From: an uncultured Planctomycetales bacterium
Lineage (GTDB): Bacteria > Planctomycetota > Planctomycetia > Isosphaerales > Isosphaeraceae
Direction: 5' to 3'
DNA length: 32,695 bases
Assembly: GCA_903926465.1 (NCBI GenBank)
Contig: CAIYJE010000012.1
Location: 1-32,695 of the forward strand
Under the pieces are notes generated by a model. The model saw nothing but the letters and a program-made list of their open reading frames with translations, had not been told where the DNA came from and did not search any database. The position numbers and the translations under genes are program-made. This document shows, piece after piece, positions 15,621-16,466 of the stretch (the first letter of the stretch is position 1; each line of letters starts with the position of its first letter).

Positions 15621-15637
15621 TTCCAGCGATGCTGGAA
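15621..15637 (-). terminator. Short hairpin, possible original terminator of the 137-aa gene
   Basis: TTCCAGC (15621-15627) pairs with GCTGGAA (15631-15637), loop of 3. If the MITE-like element and one copy of its 10-bp direct repeat are removed, this hairpin lies about 8 nt after the stop of the minus-strand gene at 15946-16359. There is no adjacent T-run, so terminator activity is uncertain. Confidence 0.35.
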
Positions 15638-15640
15638 ACT

Positions 15641-15952
15641 CGGTCAGTCTTAATTATTCAGCCGAATGCAGTAATCCATGAGATAAGGCCGGTTTTCCGG
15701 GCTGAAGGCCCGGTTCTACCAGCCCAGGCCGAAGGCCTGGGTAATGGTATCCCCCCCCAGACCACCCGCCCTTAAGGGGCGGTTCATTCGTGTGCTTGAG
15801 AGACGCCCTTACATGGCTCAAAGACTATGCTATAGGCATGGGCACAAACCCGGGCCTTCGGCCTGGGCTGTGTGAACGACCCCTTCAGGGTCGAGAATTT
15901 CATGCCGTTTGATGACGGTCTCTGGATTCGGCTGAATGCTTACGGTCAGTCT
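15641..15952. mobile_element. MITE-like non-autonomous insertion with TIRs and 10-bp target duplication
   Basis: Direct repeat CGGTCAGTCT at 15641-15650 and 15943-15952 abuts 21-bp inverted termini at 15651-15671 and 15922-15942. The termini agree at 18 of 21 positions and share a perfect 12-bp core, ATTCAGCCGAAT. The body is about 292 bp with no open frame. It is packed with hairpins: CCGGGC/GCCCGG at 15697-15713, an 8-bp stem at 15723-15741, CCGCCC/GGGCGG at 15766-15782, a similar stem near 15850-15868, and CGACCC/GGGTCG at 15877-15893. The right-arm hairpins are near reverse complements of the left-arm ones, so the element is a large imperfect inverted repeat. The insertion point overlaps the stop codon of the neighbouring gene, but the duplication restores it. 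Confidence 0.8.
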
Positions 15953-16359
15953 TTTTCAGTCTCTCCAGAGGCTTTCTGCATAGGCGAGGAGATCTGAATC
16001 ACCACCTCTTCGGCCAGGATGGTACCCACCATGGATCCCTCCAGGTGGACAATGACCAGGGGCCTGAAATCGTCCACGGAGGGAATCACGCCTGGTCCTG
16101 TGAAGGGGTAACTGAGCGAGACAAGGGTCGGACCTGTTTCAGCCGGTTCAACAGGTCGCCAGGTCAGGTCGACAATGACGAACGGAAACCCATCGTCCCT
16201 GGTCTGATAGAGCTGGACAGCATACGTATTCCTGAACGTCAGGAGCGTGGTGTGATGCGGCGGAATGCTATCGATGAGTTCCAGCCGCAGTGATTTACCA
16301 CCCTCGACATACTCAACGCCGACCAGGTTGACGACATTCAAGTGGCCGCTGTGAGGCAT
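15946..16359 (-). CDS. Hypothetical 137-aa protein in the dxs-nadK interval
   Basis: I do not recognise this protein. The ATG at 16359 has AAGGA with a 5-nt spacer, which supports it as real. The sequence is beta-rich with alternating hydrophobic residues (LNVVNLVGVEYVEGGKSLRLELIDSI, FPFVIVDLTWRPV, FRPLVIVHLEGSMVGTI), no signal peptide or membrane segment, and a charged C-terminus (GETEKD). It is probably a small cytoplasmic beta-sandwich or barrel. The stop codon lies inside the right copy of the insertion's 10-bp direct repeat. A 61-nt palindrome lies just upstream. Being enclosed by repeats in an otherwise conserved housekeeping block suggests acquisition, but that is inference. Confidence 0.6.
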   Translation of the reverse strand: MPHSGHLNVVNLVGVEYVEGGKSLRLELIDSIPPHHTTLLTFRNTYAVQLYQTRDDGFPFVIVDLTWRPVEPAETGPTLVSLSYPFTGPGVIPSVDDFRPLVIVHLEGSMVGTILAEEVVIQISSPMQKASGETEKD

Positions 16360-16384
16360 GGTTGGTCCTTGCTGTCTGGCGTGT

Positions 16385-16445
16385 CATAGTAAAAGGGGTC
16401 AGGACTCGTTTTGCCGCAAAACGAGTCCTGACCCCTTTTACTATG
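16385..16445. repeat. 61-nt perfect hairpin with 29-bp stem
   Basis: The 29 bases at 16385-16413 are the exact reverse complement of 16417-16445, with a 3-nt loop (CCG). The arm contains AAAAGGGGTCAGGACTCG. The hairpin lies 21 nt beyond the dxs stop and 25 nt upstream of the 137-aa gene's start codon. It could end dxs transcription, but its length and perfection suggest a repetitive extragenic palindrome or a transposon end rather than an ordinary terminator. From memory, motifs with GGGGTCAGGACTC recur in other bacteria near IS200-like transposases; this was not checked. Confidence 0.8.
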
Positions 16446-16466
16446 TTGATCCCTTTACGTATCGTC

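What the first reader, a model, noticed from the sequence alone, without database searches (positions are those of the whole stretch)
15641..15952. MITE-like element with reconstructable empty site
A 10-bp direct repeat (CGGTCAGTCT) directly abuts 21-bp inverted termini (18 of 21 identical, 12-bp perfect core). The body is about 292 bp, non-coding and full of hairpins. Removing the element and one repeat restores a plain sequence in which the stop codon of the 137-aa gene is followed closely by a hairpin. A 10-bp duplication is in the range reported for some IS4-group elements, so a resident transposase could move it in trans.
Basis: partly seen in the sequence, partly recalled or inferred. 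Interest (0 to 1): 0.68.

Follow-up and report, generated by a model that had tools for sequence, protein, structure and literature searches.

The report
IS66-ended mobile element carrying hairpin array
This is a short, gene-less jumping DNA element whose ends are those of an IS66-family insertion sequence abundant in the same genome, and its body is an ordered set of hairpins that was catalogued elsewhere as an orphan "RNA" (Acido-Lenti-1) but which here looks like the ends of a different class of transposon.

Summary
The element is real: 15650-15943, 294 bp, with 22-bp IS66-type inverted ends and an 8-bp target duplication (GGTCAGTC). The parent is not IS4. The 12-bp end core occurs 55 times in the genome. 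The 33 contig ends that run into a full-length element include nine left/right pairs sharing exactly 8 bp of flank and none sharing 9. Complete relatives (about 1.52 kb, one IS66 transposase gene) occur in related genomes.
The body is not deleted IS66. It is a six-hairpin array: two inverted copies of the Rfam motif Acido-Lenti-1 (RF01687) around two more hairpins, with strong compensatory base changes. The array recurs without IS66 ends in other genomes of the phylum. Elsewhere the same motifs bracket IS200-type Y1 transposase genes in outward orientation, so I read Acido-Lenti-1 as ends of a Y1 element. In this genome IS66 ends enclose the array and moved it. In another genome it sits between unrelated ends with 9-10 bp duplications.
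Shown: ends, duplications, families, arrays. Inferred: movement in trans, direction of capture, and the Y1 origin of the array. No exact empty allele was available.

The parts
15642..15649 (.). left copy of the 8-bp target site duplication GGTCAGTC
   Evidence: sequence; 8 bp is the length in other copies and in the parent
15650..15671 (+). left end TTAATTATTCAGCCGAATGCAG (IS66-type; 19/22 identical to the resident IS66 right end, outermost G mutated to T)
15697..15713 (.). hairpin h1
15723..15741 (.). hairpin h2
15698..15741 (-). Acido-Lenti-1 (RF01687) match, h2+h1 read on the minus strand; 23.7 bits, below gathering (37), while sister copies reach 41.2
15766..15782 (.). central hairpin h3
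15805..15817 (.). central hairpin h4 (stem imperfect in this copy)
15849..15893 (+). second, inverted Acido-Lenti-1-like unit: hairpins h5 (15849-15867) and h6 (15877-15893)
   Evidence: assigned by alignment to sister copies that score in Rfam
15922..15943 (-). right end GTAAGCATTCAGCCGAATCCAG (21/22 identical to the resident IS66 left end)
15944..15951 (.). right copy of the target site duplication GGTCAGTC; contains the TGA stop of the 137-aa ORF
15621..15637 (.). host hairpin TTCCAGCGATGCTGGAA that would follow the 137-aa ORF in the empty site
   Evidence: sequence
15946..16359 (-). 137-aa ORF whose 3' end received the insertion (no Pfam or NCBIfam match)

Best explanation
A non-autonomous IS66-family (ISBst12-type) element. 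Its two 22-bp ends are those of a resident, recently active, single-gene IS66 element, whose transposase most likely moved it in trans and made the 8-bp duplication at the 3' end of the 137-aa gene. Its body is not a deleted IS66. It is a captured six-hairpin array (h1-h2-h3 | h4-h5-h6) made of two inverted Acido-Lenti-1 motifs, which elsewhere form the outward-facing ends of IS200-like Y1 transposase elements. The array was most likely enclosed by IS66 ends once in this lineage and then spread as a unit. Shown: ends, duplication, parent, family of copies, array identity, covariation, Y1 genes bracketed by the motif. Inferred: transposition in trans, the order of capture, and the Y1 origin of the array.
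For: IS66 ends: core 55 times genome-wide, many about 120 bp from contig ends. The outward ORF fragments match full-length relatives of 482 aa with PF03050 (E 2e-40) and NCBIfam IS66 (E 2e-80). Duplication of exactly 8 bp: nine left/right contig-end pairs, none at 9; intact elements in relatives with CGAAAAGG and CGCTTTCC; sister copies GAATCCTG and GCGGATTT, and 7/8 matches at two more. A family of about 300-bp copies with the same body; 25 of 29 body matches elsewhere in the genome have an IS66-type end within 350 bp, against a background of 0.025 per kb. Body: Acido-Lenti-1 in sister copies up to 41.2 bits, as inverted pairs about 160 bp apart, at a fixed 48-50 bp from the IS66 end. Motif in 96 of 392 genomes of the phylum (79 over the curated cut-off), 0 of 14 controls. 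Twenty arrays: 24 of 36 pairs with double changes, covariation 0.389 against 0.145 +/- 0.013. Y1 genes bracketed by outward motifs in five genomes, plus one-sided cases in two other-phylum contigs.
Against: No strain with the exact empty site is held; the nearest relatives lack the 137-aa gene as well. The window copy is diverged (81% to its best sister; left outermost base mutated; h4 imperfect), so it may no longer move. The window's own Acido-Lenti-1 score is below the gathering cut-off. The resident IS66 body is not in the assembly, so its intactness is inferred from its two ends and from relatives. I did not search this genome for its own Y1 gene. The excess of Y1 genes near the motif over control loci is only suggestive by count (6 of 47 against 0 of 29); the bracketing geometry carries the argument.
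Confidence: 0.88

Rival explanations
1. A MITE of an IS4-group element with a true 10-bp duplication.
For: The literal repeat in the window is 10 bp; IS4 elements can make 10-bp repeats (PMC11946415).
Against: Duplications are 8 bp in two independent sister copies, in nine parent pairs and in two intact relatives. The parent transposase is IS66. DDE_Tnp_1-type genes found in the genome did not carry these ends, apart from an IS1380 insertion nested inside one copy.
Confidence: 0.03
2. The hairpin array is the primary mobile unit: it moves by a Y1 (IS200/REP-type) transposase, and the IS66 ends are an old, now passive shell.
For: The array occurs without IS66 ends in many genomes, and the motifs bracket Y1 genes.
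Against: In this genome the IS66 ends sit at fixed distances from the array, with 8-bp duplications outside the IS66 ends, so the last movements were by IS66.
Confidence: 0.07
3. The array is a host-useful RNA or DNA module (3'-end hairpins, terminator or mRNA stabiliser) kept by selection, and the compensatory changes reflect that function; transposon ends merely distribute it.
For: Very strong covariation; Weinberg et al. 2010 scored the motif as probably RNA; the insertion lies at a gene's 3' end.
Against: Quasi-palindrome correction during replication, or recognition of the hairpins by a Y1 transposase, would give the same covariation; no expression data.
Confidence: 0.15

Closest known systems
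IS66 family, ISBst12 group (for example ISDge4 of Deinococcus geothermalis, PMC12898284)
   Same: Ends GTAA..TTCAGCC (ISDge4: GTAACTGCTCAGCA), 8-bp duplication, single IS66 transposase gene in the parent
   Different: The window element has no transposase and a body unrelated to the IS
Bacterial MITEs in general (for example MITEPsy1, MITEAba12, NEMIS, Nezha)
   Same: About 300 bp, inverted ends shared with a resident IS, target duplication, non-coding, folds strongly
   Different: The body is not an internal deletion product of the parent but a separately distributed hairpin array; I found no open paper describing an IS66 MITE of this kind
Acido-Lenti-1 RNA (Rfam RF01687; Weinberg et al. 2010, PMC2864571)
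   Same: Hairpin pairs h2+h1 and h5+h6 match the model; sister copies exceed its curated cut-off
   Different: Described as a single orphan RNA of Acidobacteria and Lentisphaerae; here it comes in inverted pairs inside mobile elements
REP/BIME/REPIN and Y1 (TnpA_REP, IS200-type) systems (PMC3733652, PMC6006769)
   Same: Inverted pairs of tagged palindromes, (G)TAG before h2 in many copies, bracketing Y1 genes
   Different: Nearby Y1 proteins pass the IS200/IS605 cut-off but not the REP-associated one; the array has six hairpins, not two

Membership tests
IS66 family (as a non-autonomous member) | 8-bp target site duplication | tested here: met
   window, two sister copies, nine parent contig-end pairs, two intact relatives
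IS66 family (as a non-autonomous member) | terminal inverted repeats of about 20-30 bp beginning GTAA | tested here: met
   right end GTAAGCATTCAGCCGAATCCAG; left end has T for the first G
IS66 family (as a non-autonomous member) | parent encodes an IS66 transposase | tested here: met
   PF03050 and NF033517 in complete relatives whose termini match; resident copies matched at both ORF ends only
IS66 family (as a non-autonomous member) | moved in trans by that transposase | not testable with these tools
   needs a transposition assay
IS4 family | 10-bp duplication as element property | tested here: not met
   8 bp in all independent cases with exact duplications
MITE | short, non-coding, inverted ends shared with an autonomous element, several copies | tested here: met
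Acido-Lenti-1 (RF01687) | covariance-model score above the curated cut-off | tested here: inconclusive
   window copy 23.7 bits (cut-off 37), sister copies 41.2 and 38.8
REPIN / REP-RAYT | inverted pair of palindromes tagged GTAG at the foot | tested here: inconclusive
   inverted pairs yes; (G)TAG tag in many arrays (C168 GGTAGCCC, G069, G049) but CCAG in the window copy
REPIN / REP-RAYT | cognate REP-associated tyrosine transposase | tested here: inconclusive
   bracketed Y1 genes match Y1_Tnp and IS200/IS605 over cut-off, RAYT model below cut-off; not searched for in this genome

The most novel reading that the evidence does not exclude
The six-hairpin array is a module that unrelated transposases repeatedly pick up: IS66 ends with 8-bp duplications and a second end type in this genome, and CTTGTCTTTGCACACA ends with 9-10 bp duplications in another genome. 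An orphan structured-RNA family (Acido-Lenti-1) would then really be the end sequence of a Y1 transposon that has become a promiscuous hitch-hiker, perhaps kept because its hairpins act at gene 3' ends or are themselves a preferred landing site.
Probability: 0.4. Interest if true: 0.75.

Novelty: new variant of a known kind. Interest (0 to 1): 0.58.

Why it matters
It gives an identity to an Rfam family with no known function. The motif is found in about a quarter of the genomes sampled in this phylum, often in many copies, comes as inverted pairs, and brackets IS200-type transposase genes, so tools that annotate it as a small RNA are probably marking transposon ends. It also shows a cut-and-mix route to new MITEs: one transposon's ends enclosing another's hairpins. 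And it corrects a rule of thumb: a 10-bp repeat in one copy can hide an 8-bp duplication, which only other copies reveal.

Tried and rejected
DDE_Tnp_1 (IS4/IS5/IS1380-type) genes as parent: twelve found, none with these ends, except an IS1380 element with CTAG duplication inserted inside one copy at C193. The PF03050 genes recovered whole or in part in the assembly were other IS66 elements, not the parent. Type-A and type-B contig ends as two different ISs: rejected by the nine matching 8-bp flanks. Pfam on the 42- and 30-residue ORF ends gave nothing useful. Close relatives for an empty allele: none in the same genus; nearest NAD kinase about 70% identical, and where dxs and nadK lie close together there, neither the 137-aa gene nor the element is present. 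Plasmid and exact-pattern scans of other collections: no match. miRNA-family Rfam matches at 16383-16447 are artefacts of a perfect palindrome.

Full report
Observation. The repeat, the inverted ends and the hairpin-rich non-coding body are present exactly where stated. The 12-bp core ATTCAGCCGAAT occurs 55 times in the 6.9-Mb genome and its reversed control 0 times. With up to three mismatches the 22-bp end occurs 86 times, control 0. Pairing left flanks of one array with right flanks of another gave no inverted arms plus direct repeat of 8 bp or more in 506 trials, while the window and six other arrays of 23 do have one.

The parent. Many of the 55 core matches lie about 120 bp from the end of a contig, reading into the contig end, as happens when an assembly breaks at a long multi-copy element. 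There are two kinds of contig end: A, 19 examples, and B, 14 examples. A opens an ORF (MAPLGTDTHDLTSLLDILGPQMTAEQAMLI), and B carries the end of one, whose stop lies in the inverted repeat. Nine A/B pairs share exactly 8 bp of outside flank, none shares 9 or more, and A/A pairs share none at 8. So A and B are the two ends of one element that makes 8-bp duplications. The C-terminal peptide finds 476-490-aa homologues in related genomes. Complete elements of 1520 and 1519 bp there have ends such as GTAAGCCTTCAGCCGAATTCAG, 8-bp duplications CGAAAAGG and CGCTTTCC, and one 482-aa transposase matching PF03050 and NCBIfam IS66 well over cut-off. A single transposase gene, GTAA ends and an 8-bp duplication are what the literature gives for the ISBst12 group of IS66 (PMC12898284; PMC11946415).

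Boundaries in the window. Aligning to the parent puts the element at 15650-15943 and the duplication at GGTCAGTC. The left outermost G has become T, which happens to match the base after the right duplication, and a C before the left duplication happens to match the C that ends the element. That is why the repeat reads as 10 bp. Sister copies at C41:9381-9701 and C168:44042-44342 have exact 8-bp duplications that stop at 8; C5 and C130 match 7 of 8. The right end is 21/22 identical to the parent's left end, the left end 19/22 to the parent's right end. Beyond the ends there is no significant similarity to the IS.

The copies. At least eight copies of about 290-303 bp or their deletion forms share the body, in two subfamilies. 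Of 29 body matches elsewhere in the genome, 25 have an IS66-type end within 350 bp, against 0.025 per kb in shuffled sequence. One copy (C193) was split by an IS1380 element with a CTAG duplication. One IS66-ended element (C41) has a different body.

The body. Folding gives z = -9.2. Six hairpins, three and three in mirror order, are conserved among seven copies with 9 of 41 pairs changed on both sides. Rfam matches h2+h1 on the minus strand to Acido-Lenti-1 weakly in the window (23.7 bits) but above the curated cut-off in sister copies (41.2, 38.8), and finds the second, inverted copy h5+h6. Genome-wide there are 24 matches with E below 0.01, often as minus-then-plus pairs, 48-50 bp from the left IS66 end. 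In the phylum the motif is in 96 of 392 genomes, 79 over the cut-off, 0 of 14 controls, again in inverted pairs about 135-160 bp apart. Reading these loci shows the same six hairpins without IS66 ends. An alignment of 20 arrays from this genome, four other genomes and a Verrucomicrobiia contig keeps 91% of pairs, with 24 of 36 pairs changed on both sides and a covariation score of 0.389 (shuffles 0.145 +/- 0.013; slid controls up to 0.148).

What the array is. In five genomes of the phylum a Y1 transposase gene lies between outward-facing Acido-Lenti-1 motifs: L348, L349, L350, L351 and L295. Six Y1 proteins near the motif were scanned: all match PF01797 and the IS200/IS605 model over cut-off. 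In L266 (Hydrogenedentota) and L274 (Verrucomicrobia) the motif lies on one side. The orientation is the same as in the gene-less arrays, where h3-h4 takes the place of the gene. I infer that Acido-Lenti-1 is the end of an IS200-like element and that the array is its non-autonomous form, comparable to REP pairs (REPINs). The counting evidence alone (6 of 47 loci against 0 of 29 controls) is only suggestive; the geometry is the argument. The REP-associated transposase model stays below its cut-off, so I do not file it under RAYT.

Other shells. In this genome a second type of end (TCGTTGTACTACACAAG) encloses the same hairpins at C141 and C185 and probably C171. In genome G104 two arrays lie between CTTGTCTTTGCACACA-type ends with 9- and 10-bp direct repeats. 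Two further G104 loci and one G220 locus show inverted arms with 11-12 bp repeats, which I have not resolved. So capture by unrelated ends seems recurrent, but the number of independent events is not established.

Effect on the host. The insertion falls on the stop codon of the 137-aa ORF and restores it through the duplication, so the protein is unchanged. The ORF is now separated from its following hairpin by 302 bp of hairpin-rich sequence. An effect on the message is possible and untested.

Limits. No exact empty allele exists in the data. The resident IS66 is known only by its two ends; its middle is missing from the assembly. Covariation can also come from quasi-palindrome correction.

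Noticed in passing
16386-16444: A near-perfect palindrome with long arms (TAGTAAAAGGGGTCAGGACTCGTTTTGC..) between dxs and the 137-aa ORF; only two other partial copies of the arm in the genome. Its GGGGTCAG fits the GGGGWSAS motif reported for inverted repeats around Y1 transposase genes (PMC3733652).
   Followed up: partly
L010 1536-3440 (C193): A sister copy interrupted by an IS1380-family element with a CTAG duplication; its transposase frame has an internal stop.
   Followed up: yes
L248, L231, L235, L238, L242: A second class of elements with ends TCGTTGTACTACACAAG that repeatedly begins right after GCCC of a REP-like hairpin (in L242 flanked by GGGCGCAGCCC on both sides), and carries the same hairpin array.
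   Followed up: partly
L163 1982-2302 (C41:9381-9701): An IS66-ended 321-bp element with a perfect 8-bp duplication but a body unrelated to the hairpin array.
   Followed up: no
L335 and L339 (G104): Acido-Lenti-1 arrays in 262-bp elements with CTTGTC..TTGCACACA ends and 9-10 bp direct repeats.
   Followed up: partly
L277 1-300: A Verrucomicrobiia contig start in which the six-hairpin array sits between long, nearly perfect inverted repeats.
   Followed up: no
15946-16359: The 137-aa ORF has no Pfam or NCBIfam match and is absent between dxs and nadK in the relatives examined.
   Followed up: partly
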